From Calocera cornea HHB12733 (lineage: Eukaryota; Basidiomycota; Dacrymycetes; Dacrymycetales; Dacrymycetaceae), in NCBI GenBank assembly GCA_001632435.1, contig KV423924.1:280981-344980 (forward strand): DNA of 64,000 bases. The letters run 5' to 3'. The stretch's first letter is position 1. Every line of letters begins with the position of its first letter. The notes below the pieces were generated by a model. It did not search any database. It was not told the origin of the DNA and saw only the letters and a program-made list of their open reading frames with translations. The position numbers and the translations under genes were made by a program. Of this stretch, positions 3,755 to 63,128 are shown one piece after another.

Positions 3755-4436
3755 AGAGCAGGCCGCGCAGGGAGATGGAGATGGGGCTTGCGCGCGAGGG
3801 GGGCGTGCGCTGCTCGTGCTCCCGCGCGTAGGCGTACGAAGCAGCAGGGGGCGGGGAGCGCGCCCTCTTGCCGAGGGTTGATGCGCTCGGCGGGCTGCGC
3901 GAGCCGAGCCCTGGGGGAGAGGAGGTCGTGGGCGAGGGGTACGTGTCGTGGGCGTTGCTGTGTGCTGCGGGCCCGGGCGCGTAGCTGGGGCCGTACGGCC
4001 GGTCCAGGGGCTTGTATTCCTCGCGCAGGTGGGAGTGGGAGTGGGAGTGGGATGGGAGGGCGGGGAAGGAGGAGGGCTCGGGGGGCGGGGAGAGCGGGAG
4101 GTTGTATTGCAGGTGCAGGAGGGAGCGGTGGAGTGCTAGCTGGTGGGCGATGCGCTGGGTCAAGCCACATGAGCACGCACGACAAGGCGGGGGAAGAAGG
4201 GGCATGGGACGCACGTTGTCCTCGGCGGTCTTTGCGGCGAGGAGGGAGAGGAGGAGCTCGCGGTCCTCCCTCCCGTTCTTGCTGTAGGCGGTGAGGATCT
4301 CGCGGACTGTGGGCGGTGTGGGCTGGGCGAGGACGGAGAGTGCCCAGTCGAAGGAGGTCGGCTCGGGCGGGCAGGAGGCGCAGCGCGGGGACGGGTGGCC
4401 GCGGGCGTGGGTCGCCGTGGTGGTTGCGGTGGCCAT
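3513..4436 (-). CDS. Conserved Pro/Ser-rich hypothetical protein
   Basis: One intron (4155-4214, GTGCGT...CCCAG) joins a first exon containing an ordered helical block (TVREILTAYSKNGRED, then LLLSLLAAKTAEDN) to RIAHQLALHRSLLHLQYN. This short helical block is the only part that looks structured. The remainder is low-complexity, with a (SH)4 run encoded by a GGGAGT microsatellite near 4027-4050 and a (DP)5 run encoded by five GGGGTC units near 3724-3754. It ends with a Tyr/Arg-rich tail. No catalytic motif is visible and I do not recognise the family; a nuclear or regulatory adaptor would be a guess. Start at 4436 chosen because the ATG precedes the whole helical block. Confidence 0.7.
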
Positions 4437-6669
4437 GGGCGGGGGCGGTCAACAGTGAGCGGGGGAGCAGAAGCCGGGGGGTCACCGGGGTTTATCAACC
4501 TCTGGGTGATCCATACATAGCTGCAGGCGGGAAATGCTTGGCTCACCACCACCTTGTCGCTTCTCCTCTTGGCCAAAAATAACAAAAGGGCTTGGCATCC
4601 CCCCCGACCCGCATTCACTCCCAACTGCGCGCGTTTCACGTGCGCCCTCTCCCGGCTGCCGGGCCTCGCGGGATGCCTGCCTGCGTGGCTTATTTTAGCC
4701 AGAGATCACCCGCGTTGACCATGCATGGAATCGCCCCAGCGAATGGTAGCATCAGTCCCGCACATTGGGCAAGCAACGACTACAGTACTGAGCGCCGGAC
4801 CCCGGCCCACTTCTCTTGGCTGCGTCAAGCCCGCCGGCCATTAGCCTCCGGCGCCCCGCCCGCCCAGCCCATTGCGTAACTTGCAGGCCGCCCGAAATAG
4901 CCACACGGGCCCACACGAGCAGCACGGCGATCCAGAGTTATTCCGCTTGGTTCAATCTCGGTCATTGCACACCCACTCCTCTCTGATACCTATTTCTGGC
5001 GCACGCGATTGGAGGCGCAGAGACGCTGGCCGCAGCGCCAAGCCCAGCTCGGGTACTCATTACTACCTCCGACTCGAGAGGGGGGGAGGGGGGGGACGTG
5101 TCGGCCTCCGGGCACCCACTAAACCTGCTGATTACGATCCCGACCGGGCACCGCCCCTCCCTCCTCCCGCATCCGCATCAATCCCCCCCGCCCCGGCCCC
5201 CTTCCCAACTCGCCCCGAGCCGGTGTCCAACTGTACATAGGGTTACAGACCCGACCGTCCAGTGCAACCAAAACAAAAAAACCGCATTTCGCATTTCGCA
5301 TTTCGCGGTCGCCCGAGCCGAGCCGAGCCAAGCCCCCACGCAGCTCGTGATCGGTCCGCGGCGGCTTGGCGCGGCACGCCGCACGCCCAGCGGGGAGGGG
5401 CTTAATATAGCCCTGGCGCCAAGAGACCTCGGCCCCCCCGTTCCCATCGATCTGCTCTGCTCTGCTCTGCTCTGCCCAGCAGCCAGCGCAGCTCGTCCTC
5501 CCCTCCCGACGATAAGCGGTGCTGGCGCCGTCGGGGAAGAACACGCAGAACAGCGCGGAAAGAATATACTTGAACTTGAACTTGATGGTGCACAAGTGAG
5601 AAAAAAAGGGGCGCCACGGCCGGCTCTCGACGGGCTATTTCAGTCCTTGGCAGGGCACCTCTTCCCTTCGTGCCAAGAGCCGCCTGACAAACTCGCTCGC
5701 TCATCCAGCACTAACTACCAATACGCTCCTTGTCGCTCGCCACACTTTCCCGGCACTCACAAACTCACCAAACCACCAAGCCGATACCTAAGTGGGAGGA
5801 ATGCGCCGTACTTGCCCTTGCCCCTGCCCGACGCAGCAGGACGACTTTCTGAGGCGGTCAGGCGCCCCTCGCGACGGCGACGGACCCGCGCGCTATTTTG
5901 GGCGCGGCTGCCAAGCAGATGGTACGTATTCGATTGCCGGGTGGCACCACCGCACCGCTCGGACCCTGAGCGCCGGGCTCGGCTTGCGTCCCCCCCCGCC
6001 GTGGGTGGTGTATTCTTGGCTCCTGTCTTGTCTTGTCTTGGTCTATCATTTATCATCACAGTGCTGTATCAGTAGTATCCTCTCTTGCTGGCGCGGCAAG
6101 CGGCAATGCGACACTGGTACTGTTGGGGCCTGCCTGCATCATCGTCCGCCATCACAGTTGGATACACCGACATACAGTACACCACCCTTCTATTGACGTT
6201 CATGCAACCGCACGGCCAGCCACAGTCGCGCGCCAAGCCCATCCGCATCCAAAAATAGCCGCAGTGCGTCTTACGTGTTTCGTCTGCCGAGCAATCCATG
6301 CAGGTCTATGTACTAGTACTGTATAAGGTATCGCTCTTATCACCCCGTTCTCGAAAAGACGCGAGAAACCCGGAGAACGGCGCTCGAAATATTAATAGAC
6401 CGCCGCTTGGGCGTTCGGAGGCTTGGCTGCCGAGCTCCGTGGGCTTGGCGGGTGGGCGGAGTGTGGATTGCGCGCGAGGGCCAAGAATAGCGCTTTGCTT
6501 GCATGGCTGTATCAGGAACGTACAGTGCCAAGAATAGTACAACTACTACTCTGAAGTGGGTGGGATCGCTGTGCTCGATATTGCGTGCTGGTCGTCCTAA
6601 TGATCCAAGATGCTGGCATTGAATGCATGCGGTCGGTTTTGGAGGGCGGGGGCCGCGTGTTGGGCCGGT
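4437..6669. other. Long intergenic region with microsatellites
   Basis: About 2.2 kb with no supported gene; the 325-codon frame at 5098-6075 is low-complexity and has no motif. Contains a (TCTGC)5 tract near 5450-5476. It holds the promoter of the divergently oriented neighbour at 4436 and the 3' flank of the MFS gene ending at 6670. Confidence 0.5.
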
Positions 6670-56265: not shown

Positions 56266-57037
56266 GGCCAACGAAGGAAAGCGCGGATCCCGAGAACCGA
56301 ACGCGGCGAGCGCTGAGCACACCGCTGGGAAGGCGGCTTCTACAAGTACAGTTTCTGTAACACGCAGATGCGCAGGGGGAGTTTATGATCATGCACGCAA
56401 GCATGTGTTCCGAGTTGCAAGTGATGATGTAGCTTGATGCACCCCCGAGATCCACCAGGTCGGTCAATATTGCGGGGCAGGACATCGGACCATTGATGTC
56501 CACCCTACGTGCACCAAGCACCAGTCCGCCCAGAAATTCGTGCCCCCTTTGTGAGCCAGCAGAACCGCAAGTCGCCCTTGATCTTCAACAAGATACAATT
56601 CAATACAATGCATTGTTGACACCCAGCACTAGATGGCGGCAGGCTGTGAACGTCCAAACCTCCACCAACGCGTTGACAGATGCCGTACGCTGTCACAGCG
56701 AGTGACTCTCGCGACAGGCGCCCCAGCGTATCCAGTGCTCCACAAAACTGAGAAACTGAAATAGGACGACGCTCGAGCGCCTGTCCAGCCTGGGGGTGGG
56801 GGTGGACAGCGCGCGCCGAGCGGCCCGAGGCCGGCTGAGCGGGGTGTCCACCGGGAGCGGGGGCTTGCCCGCGCCCCGAGCGCTGGACTGGCCTGGTGCG
56901 CAATCCGGTATGCGATATGCAGTATGCGGTATGCATCGTCCAGGCTGTGCGCGAGAACGACTACTTGCGTACTTTCCGCCACTCATACCTGTCAACAGTG
57001 GAATGTGCTTCCGTGCTTTTGCCTCCGGGGCCCGGCT
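56266..57037. other. Left flank of the palindrome-rich element
   Basis: No gene supported. Degenerate CCAGGCTG/CAGCCTGG words occur near 56785 and 56938, so the element boundary may lie here. No clear terminal inverted repeat or target-site duplication could be matched to the right side by eye. Confidence 0.4.
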
Positions 57038-57145
57038 AGGCTGCGCCTCCCGTTCGGCTCTGCTGGCACCCTTGCTCCTCGCTGTCTCATCCTCTCCCCC
57101 GATACACTGCCGACTGACAGCCCGATTCTTCAGCTTGACTTACGC

Positions 57146-59868
57146 ATGCCCCCTGCTCTGGATGGAGGAGTCCTGGAGGCTCTCCTGGCCGCTGACCTTG
57201 CGCCCGGAGAGCCCAACACTCGTGTCCAGCTGATCAACCTCTATGAAGAAGCCGACGACGAAGGTGAGCCGCTGGATCCACCATTCTGGCAGTGAGTACA
57301 TCCATCCTGCCCTTGGACGCGCAGCCTGACCATTCTTTCACAGTCTCACCCTCAGCGATGGTCTCCTTCAGGTCGCCAATGTTGTTGCCGGACCCGAGCT
57401 CATCCCCAGGCTGCGCGAAGGTGCGCTCAGGCTGTACGACGTAGTGGACATCGTAGCGGCCGAGCGTTGGGTGACAAACTTTGGTGATGGGTGCGTCTCT
57501 CTAGGCTGCGCAGCCTGAGTCCTACTGACATTAGCCCAGGTTATCAATCATCATCTACGAGGTCGACCGCATCCAGGGCTTCAACGGCTTCATTGGCCGC
57601 CCCGACCCTCCTGCCCACTGGGAGCGTATCAACTGTCCGTACGATGGGTATCTCCGCTCTCTGAACTGGATCCCCGCGCCCAATGAAGCAGTCGACTCGC
57701 AGCCATCCTCTCAAGGCTCTGCTCCACCCGCTGTGGACCATGCTCTTGCTCCGGGCCTGCAGGCTGCGCAGCCTGGCGGAGCAGGCCCCCAGCAACTGCT
57801 TCGTCCTCCCCAGCCTGAGCAGGCTGCGCAGCCTGGTGGGGCTCCCGGACACGCTCGGCCCCATGGGGCAGTCACCATCATTGGGGTAGGGGATGTCCCA
57901 GACCACCTCATCGCCCAGTCCCAGCCAGTCGTTCCCCGCCCACCTGAGCCCCGTGCATATGTGGTCGATCAAGACTTCCCGATGAACGAACCGCTGGATG
58001 CCGACGCTGTGCAGCACTACGCAGAGAATCCTGGACTGCTCCCTGGGGCGGCGGCGCAGCCTGACCCTCTCCCTTGGCAGATGCCTGGGTGGGGTCCGCC
58101 CCCAAAGATCACGCCCATCCAAGAAGTTGTGGCGTACAATCGCAAGTGAGTCGCCCACCTCCCAGGATGCGCATACGCTGACCGTCTGCAGTGTCTATGT
58201 CATCGGGCGAGTGTCCCGCATCACTCCACGCAACAAAACGGTCGACCTGGTGTTGCACGATGCCCATTCCGAGATCGACCTTGTTATCAAGCAGTGCAAG
58301 GACCCGAAGATGTCAGCCTTTGAGCGTGCCGAGGGGATCCAGGTGGGCAAGGTGAGTGCGCAGCCTGGGTGAGCCTTGTATTGCACTGACCAGGCTGCGC
58401 TTCCAGGTATACTGCGTGACCAATCTCAACGTGGTTGCATCGGTGCAGTACTGGTGTCGCTCGTACCATCCCGCACAGCTGGTCTTTGTTGCCCCAGAGG
58501 CAGAGTTCCTGGAGGTGAGTGCTCAGGCTGCGCAGATGCCTGGAGCGCAGCCTGACCTGATGTTGGTACAGGTTCCAGATGATGGCACGATCCCGCGTAT
58601 GCACTTCAACCTGCGGAAGATTGCCCAGCTGCCCAGCATTCCCGATCGAAAACCTGTTGGTGCGTCTCGGCAGGCTGCGCAGCCTGGGTGTGGGTGCTGA
58701 CATCTCATCCAGATATTGCATGCATCATTGTCAACACAAGCAACGTCATGTTTGGTCGTACGCCGGCGGAGGCAAGCTTTGTGAGTGCTCTTCCCCTCCC
58801 CCCAGGCTGCGCAGCCTGACCATTGGCAGGACCATGCTCAACCGGCTGCCACCACCCGCATGGACATGTGGGTTGCCGACGAGGCGGGGCACATGGGGCA
58901 CTTTGTTGCCTTTGACCAGTTCTGGCGCCGCTTGGAGGGCTCGGAGGGAAGAGTCGCCCTTCTCAAGAACGTCCTCGTGGACAAGTCTCGCGGACTGTCG
59001 ATCCGGACCGATGCGGCTCACACGCAGATCCTGTGGGATGACGATGTGCCCAATCATGCTGAGTTGCTGGCTTGGTCCGTCACTCTGTCCAAGCTCGTCA
59101 GGCTGCGCACTGACGGGGATTTCAGGTGGGACTTTGCCAAGGATGACCCCATGCAATGGCATGTCTTAAGCGCAGCCTGCAGCGCCAATGGAGCACGCTC
59201 GCTGAAAGTGCGCAGCCTGCTAACGGCGCCACCGCTCAAGACCATTGCTGAAGTGTACCGCGAGAAGCTGGACGAGGATCTCCGCACTGGTACCTTTCGT
59301 ATCGAAGGTACAATCGAGTTTGATGAAGCCAAATCGGTGACATACCAAGGCTGCGCAACGCCGAACTGCAATCGCAAGGTGGATCTGGGCGATGTTGCCG
59401 CCGATCACTTCTATCACTGCCCGCTCTGTGGACAAGCTTTCTTTTTCCCAGTTCCCAAGTAAGTGCCACGGGTCCTCAGGCTGCGCAGCCTGGGCATGCT
59501 GATCAGACATCCCTTTAGATACTGTTTGCAGTTCTCGTTGATCGACCGGAATGGACAGCGCGCCCAGGTCACGGCCTTCAACACTGCCGCAGAGTCCGTG
59601 CTGGGAATCAGCGCGGAGAACATGCACGAATTGTATCAGGATGAGGTATGTCGTTCGCCTAGGCTGCGCAGCCTGGAGGTTAACCTTGGACACAGGCAAG
59701 GTTCAAGCCGGTCCACGCCCTCAACCTTCGTAGTGCAATGACTGGCCGGTACATTGTCACAATCCAGGGTACGCGAAAGGCTGTTGGGTACTTCAGGCTG
59801 CGCCGTTCGTGGATTGCCACCGAATTCTTCAAGGTCGGGCGTGCTTATGATGATGCACCGGAGGTGTA
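57146..59868 (+). CDS. Divergent RPA1-like ssDNA-binding protein
   Basis: About 749 residues from ten exons; summed exon length is an exact multiple of three. OB-fold blocks: N-terminal LTLSDGLLQVANVVAG and LYDVVDIVAAERWV; central VYVIGRVSRITPRNKTVDLV, HSEIDLVIKQ and FERAEGIQVGKVYCVTNLNV, typical of RPA DNA-binding OB domains; C-terminal zinc ribbon CATPNCNRKV...HFYHCPLCGQ (C-x4-C, C-x2-C) with FSLIDRNGQRAQVTAFN. The three-OB plus ribbon order is that of the RPA large subunit, but the sequence is unlike a housekeeping RFA1 to my eye (for example IACIIVNTSNVMFG). The linker contains QAAQPG twice, encoded by complete palindromes. Introns 57292-57343, 57491-57540, 58146-58191, 58352-58406, 58515-58571, 58660-58712, 58781-58829, 59459-59519, 59646-59695. 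It could be transposon cargo. Confidence 0.82.
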
Positions 59869-59978
59869 AGTGGGCGTGAGGGCCGGTGACTGAGTGTCCA
59901 AGTGTCTGAGTTTTCAACGTTATGCGCAGCCTGGGTAGAGATCAAGCCATAGGTAGTGTGCAATATGATGTCATTCTT

Positions 59979-62329
59979 CTATGCAGGAACTACAGGCTGC
60001 GCTCGTGATGCCTGACCGGCATAAGGCTGCGCCTCCCGTTGCACGCGTCGCTTGCGGTGTGGCAAAGACTTGGCTGTCTCTACGGCGCTCGTGATGTTGG
60101 GCGGAAGCTTGAGGGCTGTGGGCAGTGAGGTAGGGTTAGGCGCAGCCTGGGCTAAGATTGTGTCCATTAAGGCAATGACTTGGCTGATTTCGCTCTTGAA
60201 TGCGTGGGGGGCGCAGCCTGGTAGCCAGTGGGACAGCTGCACGGCACGGTTGTACAATCGATCTGCGAGCGGGACCTCGACCACTTTCAATGCCCCATTT
60301 CGAGGGGCATCTACTTCTTGGACCTCTTCAACCTCACTTGGCTCACTGGGAGGGGGAAGCACCAGCAGATGCGCAGCCTGGCCTGGCGGGAAATGAATCT
60401 CAACCGCAGCCATATGCTTGCAGTACTGGATTCGGGGATAGGCTGCGCACTCGCAGACTCCACCCTCCATATCAACCTTGTATGATTGGCCGGCTTTGCT
60501 CTGAGACTGAACTTGATAGAGCTGATGGCCCTTGTTCTAATGTCGTTCGGGCGTCAGCGCAGCCTGGAGGAGCCAATAACCAGGCTGCGCACCAATACAT
60601 CTCCAAGAGCAATCTTGGCCCCATCGGACTCAGCCTTGATGCGAGCCTGCGCTGCAAGGTTCAGGCCCTCGAAGCCTCCCTGTTGCCGTCGATATTGGAG
60701 GGCATAATGGGCAGCAACATCTGTTGTCAATGTGTGGAGAAGGTCATCCATTCTTCGGTTTCGGGCCCCATGTAAGAAGGTGGATTTCAGGACATGGTGC
60801 CATCTATAAGCAGAATCAGCACGGGAAGCGCAGCCTGGAGGAGTTAGGCTGTGCACGCACGCTTCAATATGCATGTTGGTATGCACTTCCTCAAAAATGT
60901 GTCGATCTTGCCGAGAGACTGCAGACCACATAGGCTTGTCCAAAGTCCAGTTGAGAAGCAGATATTGCTGAAATTTGGGGGGCGACAGGGCATAAATTTG
61001 GCCCCAATGTTGGTCAAACTCGACTTCATCCTGGATTCGAATCCATTGCTTCAAGAGAGTCCAGAGCTCCGGGTGATCACTGATACGTAGGTGTTGTTGC
61101 CATGCATGGAGAACATGCCACCAGCAAAGAAGTACAGTTGACGAGGGATAGATGGCGCGAATGGCAGAGATCTGAGCCTGGTTCTTGTCTGTCATGACAT
61201 AGTGCGGAGTGACTGAGTTGGATGCCCGGAATAGTCGGAGCCAATATTGGAGTGTGAGAGCTTCACCATTGGATGAGAGCAGCCATGCCACTGGAATGCC
61301 TGGGTAACTATCAGGCTGCGCAGCCTGGAGGGCAAGAGGAAGAAGACATACCATGCCCCCAATGATCACGGCACAATAAAGTGAAAAGGGTGACCTTGTA
61401 GTATTGCGTGACATTGTGGGTGTCATCAATACACATGATGTGGTCACCTATTTCCGAAAATACTTGCTTCTGCCATGGTGTTTGAATGGCAATAAACATC
61501 ATGCTAGGATCAAGGTACGATGTGTCGGGCGCAGCCTGGTGGACCAGCTTGGAGCCAAGCAGTGAGTGGTGGTCGCGCAGCCTCTGAATCCATAATTGTG
61601 TGGACAAATCATCGCTGGGGGCCAACTGAACAGACTCAGCACGCACAGACCTCTGCCAGGCTGCGCATTAGCATGTGGAGGAAGACTTGGAATCAGGCTG
61701 CGCACCTGCAAGCGCTTGATGTCACGCATAGTCACGAAGTGATCTCTCTCAATCAGAGGTGCTTGAGTGGGATCATATGCTGATCCATGGATAGTCCTCA
61801 AGATTTCTCGGGGTTCGACCTTCAGGCGGAGCATTTCCTCAATATAGGCACGGGTCTGGGGCTGAACTCGAACAAATGGTGCATTGGGGTCACCAATGAG
61901 GTGTGAATGAATAGCATGGTAGCGTCCAAGCACCTTTGGAGTGTCCGGATATGTCTTGGTGATTAAAAGGCACTCGCAGCCTGTCTAATGAAGTCATCAG
62001 GAAGAGTAATGGTACAGAATTGGATCCAGGCTGCGCACCCTTTTGCTTGGTACTTTTCGCTTCCACTCGGGATGTTTCTTCTCATATGCTTTGATGCCTC
62101 CAGTTCCATCACGGGTACATACCCACAGTCTGCGCTCCCGAAAGGACAAGTGGCCGGTTTGGGTGTTAGGTTTCCCATGGACCAGGTTGCGCCTGCCAAG
62201 CTGAATGAGCTCAGTACGTTCTTCATTTGCACGCCATATGTCGAAGTCTTCTTCACAATCCCATATATGGGTATACAGACCACTCCGCAAGTCACTGAGA
62301 AAGCCACCACGTCGTGAAGAAGGATTCAT
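59979..62329 (-). CDS. MULE-family transposase with SWIM zinc finger
   Basis: About 692 residues from six exons; exon lengths sum to a multiple of three. Order: a FAR1-like zinc region (WVCTRDGTGGIKAYEKKH, TGCECLLITKTYPDT, HAIHSHLIGD); MULE catalytic domain with first Asp in MCIDDTHNVT, IPVAWLLSSNG, second Asp in VMTDKNQAQISAI, LCWWHVLHAWQQH, and the third acidic site at NMHIEAWHHVLK; then a SWIM finger, CECAAYPRIQYCKHMAA (C-x-C...C-x-H). The Glu codon abuts intron 60804-60860. Introns: 61985-62038, 61653-61705, 61300-61351, 60804-60860, 60537-60592. Three of them begin GTGCGCAGCCTG at the donor. Start at 62329 is the ATG before NPSSRRGG. No frame break seen, so it may be active. The tail is Pro/Glu-rich and contains motif-derived residues. 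Confidence 0.85.
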
Positions 62330-62358
62330 GGCCGTGCGCAGCCTGGGAGCGCAGCCTA

Positions 62359-63128
62359 GAAGAGAAAGCAGCACGCAGGGGACACCGGGCAGTGTGGAGA
62401 CAATCATAATAATTGATTTGTTGTTGATTGTGAGGTACCTCAAGGATACATCGTATACCAAGAGGACGGACTGGAATGCCGGATTTGATTCCGTGGCTAC
62501 ATGCCTCCGCTGGATCGATGGCGGAAAGTCAAGACCGAGAACGACTCGAGCTCGAGGAGACGCGAGTTGCCAGACGGGCCTGCCGCCGGCGTGCCTTCAG
62601 GTTAGCTCAACCCAGATTCTCTGGTGGCAGTGCTACTGAATGGGCCAGCGGGGTGGGCGGCGAGGGTCCAGGGGCGGCGGGAATGTTCCCGAGACCGCGG
62701 GAGGGTGGGTGTGCGTCATGCGTCATGCACCTTGCTGCGCTGGCTGGCTTGGGACAGGAATAGACTGGCGGGCGAGCTGCAGCCTCGGAGGGAGAGGGAG
62801 GTTGACGAGCATGAGCTGGTCGAGGAGCAGTACTGTACTGTACTGAGAGAAGGGCGGGTCGTCAAGCAATCGTTAGTAGCGCTGGCACAGGTGAGTCGCA
62901 TTAATATCCACCCGCAGCAGGCAGGCCGCTCAAAAATAGAATCCGCAGCATTGCCGACGGTGGGCATCGGCGGGCCATCCACGTTCGTGCGCATCACTCG
63001 CTCATACACCGCGGTCTCGCCCTCTCTCCTCACGACCAGCACCCCCTGCACGGCTTCGCGACCTCTTCCAGCGAGGGGAGAAGCAGAAGCAGCGCCGCAG
63101 CGGGCACCCTCAGCCCGCACAACCGATA
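62359..63128. other. Intergenic, upstream of GT32 gene
   Basis: About 0.8 kb; no gene supported. A GTACTGTACTGTACTG stretch near 62829 and a C-rich leader precede the ATG at 63129. Confidence 0.45.

What the first reader, a model, noticed from the sequence alone, without database searches (positions are those of the whole stretch)
57038..62358. A 5.3-kb transposase/RPA locus packed with one 16-bp palindrome
Roughly 45 half or full copies of CAGGCTGCGC/GCGCAGCCTG lie between the outermost motif copies, on both sides of two genes of opposite orientation. Known MULEs carry subterminal repeats, not a motif through the whole coding body. Possibilities: a cis element bound by the transposase or RPA-like protein, a nested micro-element, or a remnant of repeated palindromic insertions. 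I did not find this described under any element name I know.
Basis: partly seen in the sequence, partly recalled or inferred. Interest (0 to 1): 0.92.

Follow-up and report, generated by a model that had tools for sequence, protein, structure and literature searches.

The report
Fungal transposons sharing one dispersed DNA code
Jumping genes of two different superfamilies in the jelly fungus Calocera cornea are studded from end to end with the same nine-letter DNA word, kept under selection even at silent positions and in introns, and members of both carry a gene for an RPA-like DNA-binding protein that is the best candidate to read it.

Summary
The locus is a complete MULE transposon (window 56963-62537, 9-bp target-site duplication) of Calocera cornea HHB12733. 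It carries an RPA1-like gene and a MULE transposase gene. It holds 49 exact half-sites AGGNTGCGC (46 with N=C), against 7 in the rest of the window.

The motif is not peculiar to MULEs. Its palindrome AGGNTGCGCANCCT has 110 sites in the 32-Mb genome (reversed control 4); of 101 listed, 95 lie in clusters. The clusters read are two MULE copies and two distinct PIF/Harbinger lineages. Four Harbingers read carry a homologous RPA-like gene (30-32% identity); others with the motif lack it.

The motif is under selection as DNA. In transposase third codon positions, 26 of 28 motif bases match between two MULE copies, against 347 of 665 others. Every credible RPA-gene intron examined holds a site. N is nearly always C in MULEs but varies in Harbingers.

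Best explanation: a transposon-encoded RPA-like protein reads the motif along the whole element, as VANC does on Arabidopsis VANDAL elements, probably to resist silencing; some elements would use it in trans. Selection on the motif is shown; reader and purpose are inferred. Nine literature searches listed no description of it.

The parts
56963..62537 (.). Complete MULE transposon, 5575 bp
   Evidence: Full-length second copy on contig C27; shared termini and separate target-site duplications in both copies.
56954..56962 (.). Left target-site duplication AGAACGACT
   Evidence: Direct repeat with 62538-62546; the C27 copy has its own 9-bp repeat GTGCAGAGC.
62538..62546 (.). Right target-site duplication AGAACGACT
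56963..56979 (+). Left terminus ACTTGCGTACTTTCCGC (imperfect terminal inverted repeat)
   Evidence: ACTTTCCGC shared with the reverse complement of the right end in both copies.
62521..62537 (-). Right terminus, reverse complement CGGTCTTGACTTTCCGC
57146..59869 (+). RPA1-like gene, 11 exons, 10 introns, 733 aa; each of the 10 introns contains the half-site
   Evidence: Spliced model guided by annotated protein CALCODRAFT_481541 of the C27 copy; Rep_fac-A_C E 3e-14; fold matches to RPA70.
59979..62329 (-). MULE transposase gene, 6 exons, 5 introns, 692 aa; each of the 5 introns contains the half-site
   Evidence: model, no annotated protein to compare; MULE PF10551 E 1.2e-13; sites per part.
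57038..62357 (.). Field of 49 exact half-sites AGGNTGCGC (24 plus, 25 minus; 46 with N=C)
57503..57516 (.). Palindromic site AGGCTGCGCAGCCT in RPA intron 2
57761..57774 (.). Palindromic site in RPA coding sequence (encodes QAAQP)
57821..57834 (.). Palindromic site in RPA coding sequence (encodes QAAQP)
58672..58685 (.). Palindromic site in RPA intron
58804..58817 (.). Palindromic site in RPA intron
59478..59491 (.). Palindromic site in RPA intron
59661..59674 (.). Palindromic site in RPA intron
61313..61326 (.). Palindromic site in transposase intron
62028..62041 (.). Palindromic site (N=C on one side, N=G on the other) across a transposase intron 5' splice site

Best explanation
The 9-bp word AGGNTGCGC is a protein recognition half-site, used singly or as a palindrome. 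It is spread through the whole body of several DNA transposons of Calocera cornea so that a transposon-encoded DNA-binding protein can sit on the element about every 160 bp. The most likely reader is the RPA1-like protein encoded by the MULE and by members of one PIF/Harbinger lineage. The most likely purpose is VANC-like: to mark the element as self and keep it open or unsilenced, giving up little coding capacity because most sites are in introns, spacers or tolerant coding stretches. Elements with the motif but no RPA-like gene would be served in trans. Shown: the motif, its exactness, its selective maintenance as DNA, its spread over three transposon lineages, the RPA homology, and the difference at position N between MULE and Harbinger. 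Inferred: that the RPA-like protein binds the motif, that binding is in chromatin, and that the effect is anti-silencing.
For: Density 8.3-10.0 half-sites/kb in two MULEs, four RPA-carrying Harbingers and one RPA-less Harbinger, and 6.0/kb in a 3-kb stretch holding a second Harbinger lineage, against 0.12/kb in 56.9 kb of host DNA; in six elements the exact word occurs 319 times while no single-mismatch variant exceeds 12. Between MULE copies C11 and C27, transposase third codon positions are identical at 26 of 28 motif bases against 347 of 665 others (P 8e-6), transposase introns 72 of 79 against 111 of 173 (P 3e-6), RPA introns 130 of 133 against 350 of 388 (P 0.004). Intronic half-sites kept 24 of 26, against 120 of 447 control 9-mers. 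In five Harbinger pairs 67-72% alike, 36-49 sites fall at the same aligned columns, while N matches in 16 of 36 up to 35 of 49; in the MULE pair N matches in 42 of 44. With a Harbinger RPA query, the strong genome-wide hits lie on contigs with motif clusters; the exceptions are a 60-aa fragment on C70 and weak hits on C48, C140, C258 and C118, whose DNA I did not read. Four motif-free transposase relatives have 0 sites in their 3.1-4.5 kb loci: C235, C44, C202, C49. Eight of the MULE RPA gene's 10 introns share position and phase with Harbinger RPA introns, and each holds the motif. The C. viscosa protein P0006 has three peptides Q[GAVD]A[QH]P, as the motif would encode, against 0.006 expected; one lies in an insert ending at the column of a C. 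cornea intron.
Against: No binding, methylation or expression data were available. Motif-bearing Harbingers without an RPA hit exist (C14, C18, C78, C38, C268), so no single gene is common to all the motif elements read, and the RPA reading needs action in trans. Of the motif-free relatives, C235 and C44 are decayed, C202 is a short fragment with a stop and C49 is a distant 31% match, so lack of motif may follow death or distance, not absence of RPA; one half-site does lie about 2.5 kb beyond the C235 relative. CpG observed/expected in motif elements (0.68-0.89) is below host (0.98), and the decayed MULE is not CpG-poor (0.88), so CpG content gives no clear support for protection from methylation. 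RPA third positions alone do not differ significantly (27 of 28 against 605 of 706, P 0.16). Aligners can pull repeated words together, so same-column counts may be somewhat high; sites within 15 columns were 46-56 against 10-14 after shifting. Ordinary RPA binds single strands with little sequence preference (recalled).
Confidence: 0.5

Rival explanations
1. A host DNA-binding protein reads the motif, for example a transcription, chromatin or origin factor that different transposons have converged on; the RPA-like gene is a separate accessory for strand handling.
For: Three transposon lineages share the word, including Harbingers with no RPA hit; MULE and Harbinger transposases belong to different families.
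Against: The palindrome is near background outside clusters: of 101 sites listed out of 110, 6 are single, against 4 for the control, so no host gene set obviously uses it. N is nearly always C only in the MULE, which a single host reader would not explain.
Confidence: 0.2
2. The RPA-like protein binds the word on single strands (excised or replicating transposon DNA, or R-loops at transcribed genes) and acts in transposition or genome stability, not in silencing.
For: The protein has RPA70 features: RPA70N-like and DBD-C folds and zinc-ribbon cysteines 599, 604, 621 and 624 invariant in 6 of 6 sequences. A 9-nt half-site is about the size of a two-OB-fold footprint (recalled).
Against: Sites lie on both strands with no bias (24 plus, 25 minus; isolated sites sense 8 and antisense 6 in the RPA gene, sense 9 and antisense 7 in the transposase gene); across eight element sequences 66 adjacent pairs form the exact offset-5 palindrome and 14 an offset-7 one, which suits a duplex-bound dimer.
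Confidence: 0.17
3. The motif is an RNA or splicing signal: introns need it.
For: Every credible intron of six RPA genes and of the window's transposase gene holds a site; the word can supply a branch point (CTGAC) or a 5' splice site (GTGCGC) (seen by eye).
Against: 19 of 49 sites are in coding sequence and 4 between or outside genes; no orientation bias to transcription; other host DNA has almost none (0.12/kb); no Rfam match.
Confidence: 0.06
4. The transposases, or the Myb/SANT-like protein of Harbingers, bind it as internal transposition sites.
For: Such proteins bind subterminal repeats in many DNA transposons (recalled); C38 and C268 encode Myb/SANT-like proteins (E 6.9e-17, 2.6e-16).
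Against: The MULE shows no Myb domain and its transposase is of another family, yet it has the word; sites fill the body, not only the ends.
Confidence: 0.04
5. Repeated insertion of a palindromic micro-element, or a mutational bias that writes the word.
For: High copy number and palindromic form.
Against: 44 of 49 sites at identical columns in a copy whose transposase third positions outside motifs are only 52% alike; no clean 10-16 bp presence/absence; no tandem array; single-mismatch variants are rare.
Confidence: 0.03

Closest known systems
VANDAL21 / VANC21 sequence-specific anti-silencing in Arabidopsis (PMC5735166; sections 7 and 8 and abstract read)
   Same: A MULE transposon with an extra gene; a short motif (YAGTATTAY) at high density in introns and other non-coding parts of its own element and sporadic elsewhere; related elements have other motifs.
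   Different: In what I read VANC is not called an RPA protein; its motifs are arrayed in one orientation, targets often form tandem repeats, and the two coding-region probes lacked the motif. Here the word is palindromic, on both strands, also in coding sequence, not in tandem, and shared by MULE and PIF/Harbinger elements. Binding and hypomethylation are shown for VANC21 and untested here.
TET/JBP dioxygenase genes carried by diverse fungal DNA transposons (PMC12730594; 12 passages seen)
   Same: One accessory gene, thought to act on silencing, passed among different fungal transposon superfamilies including Harbinger.
   Different: That gene is an enzyme; the passages seen report no dispersed motif and name no RPA-like gene, and 'Calocera' has no occurrence in the text.
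Replication protein A large subunit (RPA1/RPA70), including RPA-like genes of Helitrons (recalled; PMC4289320 seen only as a listing)
   Same: Same protein family: DBD-C zinc ribbon by sequence, RPA70N and DBD-C by predicted fold.
   Different: Here linked to DDE elements and to a sequence word; ordinary RPA is not sequence-specific (recalled).

Membership tests
Mutator-like element (MULE) | MULE-type DDE transposase | tested here: met
   PF10551 E 1.2e-13, above cut-off.
Mutator-like element (MULE) | 8-11 bp target-site duplication (recalled) | tested here: met
   9 bp in both copies: AGAACGACT and GTGCAGAGC.
Mutator-like element (MULE) | Terminal inverted repeats (often long, absent in some groups; PMC6446971 passages) | tested here: inconclusive
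   Short imperfect repeat; 9 bp ACTTTCCGC exact in the window copy, 16 bp exact in C27.
VANDAL/VANC anti-silencing system | Short motif dense in the element and rare elsewhere | tested here: met
VANDAL/VANC anti-silencing system | Reader protein homologous to VANC | not tested
   No VANC sequence was fetched; the protein here is an RPA70 relative.
VANDAL/VANC anti-silencing system | Element-encoded protein binds the motif and removes methylation | not testable with these tools
   Needs EMSA, ChIP and bisulfite data.
VANDAL/VANC anti-silencing system | Motifs in same-orientation, often tandem arrays | tested here: not met
   24 plus and 25 minus; no tandem repeat in the block.
RPA large subunit | DBD-C with zinc ribbon | tested here: met
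   PF08646; four invariant cysteines in 6 of 6; 4gnx_C E 3.4e-20.
RPA large subunit | RPA70N and DBD-A/B domains | tested here: inconclusive
   RPA70N-like fold TMt up to 0.81 and overall hit to the RPA heterotrimer 4gop E 1.3e-19, but the model is weak, mean pLDDT 51.6.
PIF/Harbinger (other motif elements) | DDE_Tnp_4 transposase | tested here: met
   E 2.9e-11 in C62, 1.2e-13 in C14, 8.7e-16 in C38, 9.8e-12 in C268; C2, C53, C83 and C18 by homology.
PIF/Harbinger (other motif elements) | 3-bp target-site duplication | tested here: met
   AGT, AGT, ACT, ACT, ATT, ATT in the six elements and TAA in C38, each after moving the printed ends inward by one base; ends of C268 not found.

The most novel reading that the evidence does not exclude
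A transposon-borne RPA paralog has become a sequence-specific address reader. The gene and its 9-bp code form a module that has moved between transposon superfamilies, rewriting introns and silent codon positions of the new carrier until the whole element is addressed, with a change of specificity (N free to N=C) in the MULE branch and RPA-less elements free-riding on it.
Probability: 0.4. Interest if true: 0.93.

Novelty: new variant of a known kind. Interest (0 to 1): 0.85.

Why it matters
A transposon that keeps an exact 9-bp word about 50 times over, at silent positions that are otherwise only half alike and in every intron, is strong evidence for a whole-body DNA code. Finding the same code on transposons of different superfamilies together with an RPA-like gene would be a second case of VANC-type self-recognition, in another kingdom and with another protein. 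It would also turn a generic single-strand binder into a candidate sequence reader. The system gives a direct, testable handle on how transposons escape silencing and on how RPA proteins could gain specificity.

Tried and rejected
Tandem array: TRF finds none in the block. Known structured RNA: no Rfam match at gathering scores. Micro-insertion. MULE-specific motif: rejected, because Harbinger elements carry it. Transposase as reader: unlikely, for the same reason. Regular spacing: mean cluster spacing 155-175 bp in seven element sequences and 204 in C268; more regular than chance at P 0.004-0.06 in five of six elements tested and P 0.19 in the sixth, so only suggestive. Protein searches found relatives only in Calocera; the first two scored only the 7,996 and 7,993 candidates sharing most words, so wider absence is not shown. 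The viral-contig scan found nothing. No DNA of Calocera viscosa was available to me. Rough intron models guided by a distant protein gave some intron calls without a site; with each gene's own annotated protein, 46 of 48 model introns have a site, and I read the other two as model artefacts (a stretch coding the zinc ribbon that annotated P0005 lacks, and a stretch after the stop codon). A first transposase model used a wrong splice acceptor and was replaced by the in-frame one. Literature: nine searches; the listings shown, often a part of the matches, hold no description that I recognise of this motif or of an RPA-like gene in MULE or Harbinger elements. One search, for the motif letters, listed 15 of 147 papers, none on transposons by title. 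No paper of the listing holds 'Calocera cornea'.
Full report
What is there. The window is the end of contig C11 (280981-344980) of a 32.1-Mb genome. The top protein match, on a contig of the same length as C27 (246,673 bases), is annotated Calocera cornea HHB12733, a dacrymycete fungus. A second full copy lies on C27. Both copies have the same termini and their own 9-bp target-site duplications. The plus-strand gene (57146-59869) encodes a 733-aa RPA1-like protein, and the minus-strand gene (62329-59979) a 692-aa MULE transposase.

Statistics of the motif. CAGGCTGCGC: 40 in the window, 38 in the block, 0.39 expected. AGGNTGCGC: 49 in the element, 7 in the rest of the window. In six elements (33.3 kb) the exact word occurs 319 times, 9.58/kb, against 0.12/kb in 56.9 kb of host DNA, and no single-mismatch variant exceeds 12 occurrences. 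Eight positions are therefore held nearly exactly. Position N is C in 46 of 49 sites here and in 44 of 46 in C27, but mixed in the other elements.

Genome-wide. The palindrome AGGNTGCGCANCCT has 110 sites against 4 for the reversed pattern. Searches list 101 of them (my count): 95 in clusters on C2, C11, C14, C18, C27, C38, C53, C62, C76, C78, C83, C155, C179, C198, C219 and C268, and 6 single sites (two on C11, and C13, C66, C175, C283). I read the DNA of C2, C14, C18, C27, C38, C53, C62, C83 and C268, and transposase loci of C78 and C155. C2, C53, C62 and C83 are PIF/Harbinger elements of about 6.2 kb with inverted repeats and 3-bp duplications, and carry an RPA-like gene 30-32% identical to the MULE's. 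C14 and C18 hold a 2.9-kb element with the related Harbinger transposase and no RPA hit; C78 has the same transposase. C38 and C268 hold a different Harbinger lineage: DDE_Tnp_4 and Myb/SANT-like domains, not found by the first lineage's transposase, and no RPA hit. C76, C179, C198 and C219 were not read; C155, C179 and C219 have RPA-like hits.

Introns. With each gene's own annotated protein as guide, 46 of 48 modelled introns in five RPA-like genes contain an exact half-site, and I read the two exceptions as model artefacts. The window's ten RPA introns and five transposase introns each contain one. In the window element 26 of 49 half-sites lie in introns, which make up 794 of 5575 bp. Eight of the ten MULE RPA introns match Harbinger RPA introns in position (within 2 alignment columns) and phase, so these introns appear older than the split.

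Selection. The two MULE copies are mosaic: the RPA half is alike (third positions 605 of 706 outside motifs) and the transposase half far less so (347 of 665). Yet in the transposase 26 of 28 third positions inside motifs are identical (P 8e-6), and 72 of 79 intronic motif bases against 111 of 173 others (P 3e-6). In the RPA gene the intron contrast is significant (P 0.004) and the third-position contrast is not (27 of 28, P 0.16). In five Harbinger pairs, which share members and so are not independent, 36-49 sites keep their exact column at 67-72% overall identity, while N matches in 42-71%. I read this as purifying selection on a DNA word with one free letter in Harbingers and almost none in MULEs; gene conversion of short tracts cannot be excluded but would have to follow the motif.

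The candidate reader. The RPA-like protein has an RPA C-terminal domain with four invariant zinc-ribbon cysteines, a sequence match to RPA of known structure (4gnx, E 3.4e-20) and fold matches to RPA70N and DBD-C. The model is weak overall (mean pLDDT 51.6), so DBD-A/B rest on a low-confidence fold. It is the only gene found here that both the MULE and a Harbinger lineage share, and the two motif habits go with its two clades. Against this, RPA-less elements have the motif too, which requires help in trans or another reader.

Function. High density over the whole body, exactness and placement in introns recall VANC21 sites on VANDAL21 (PMC5735166, sections 7 and 8). That system differs in protein, motif arrangement and carrier range. 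Anti-silencing is the likeliest purpose but rests on analogy. CpG content is ambiguous: the decayed motif-free Harbinger C44 is strongly depleted (0.32) and the RPA-carrying Harbingers are not (0.86-0.89), but MULEs are at 0.71-0.73, the RPA-less C14 at 0.68 and the decayed MULE at 0.88.

Other species. Calocera viscosa has an RPA-like protein (P0006, 42% identity) with three motif-type peptides against 0.006 expected. One lies in a 20-residue insert that ends at the very column where the C. cornea genes have an intron, which looks like an intron annotated as coding. This is protein-level evidence only, and the QGAHP peptide, also present in four C. cornea relatives (QDAHP in a fifth), may be conserved as protein.

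Literature. Nine full-text searches listed no description that I recognise of the motif or of RPA-like genes in MULE or Harbinger elements. Papers seen: PMC5735166 (outline, two sections), PMC10398659 (outline and abstract), PMC12730594 and PMC6446971 (12 passages each); the rest as listings.

Noticed in passing
window 56963-62537 against C27 copy (L011): The element is mosaic: RPA half 85-97% alike in 500-bp bins from 57.0 to 60.0 kb, transposase half 65-84%, suggesting exchange or gene conversion of the RPA gene between MULE lineages.
   Followed up: partly
L031 (C44) and L013 (C235): A decayed Harbinger relative with CpG observed/expected 0.32 and no motif, and a decayed MULE relative with CpG 0.88; CpG decay acts on some dead transposons in this genome.
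   Followed up: partly
L014 (C257) 4394-4440: A 47-bp stretch 89% identical to the MULE left terminus with no motif field; possibly a remnant or a non-autonomous relative.
   Followed up: no
window 62443-62700: This flank repeats at 100% at the very ends of contigs C174 and C194 (95 and 216 bp), probably assembly edges.
   Followed up: no
six Harbinger A elements (L017-L022): Target-site duplications read as ANT (AGT, ACT, ATT), unlike the TAA of the C38 Harbinger; derived from the flanks printed.
   Followed up: no
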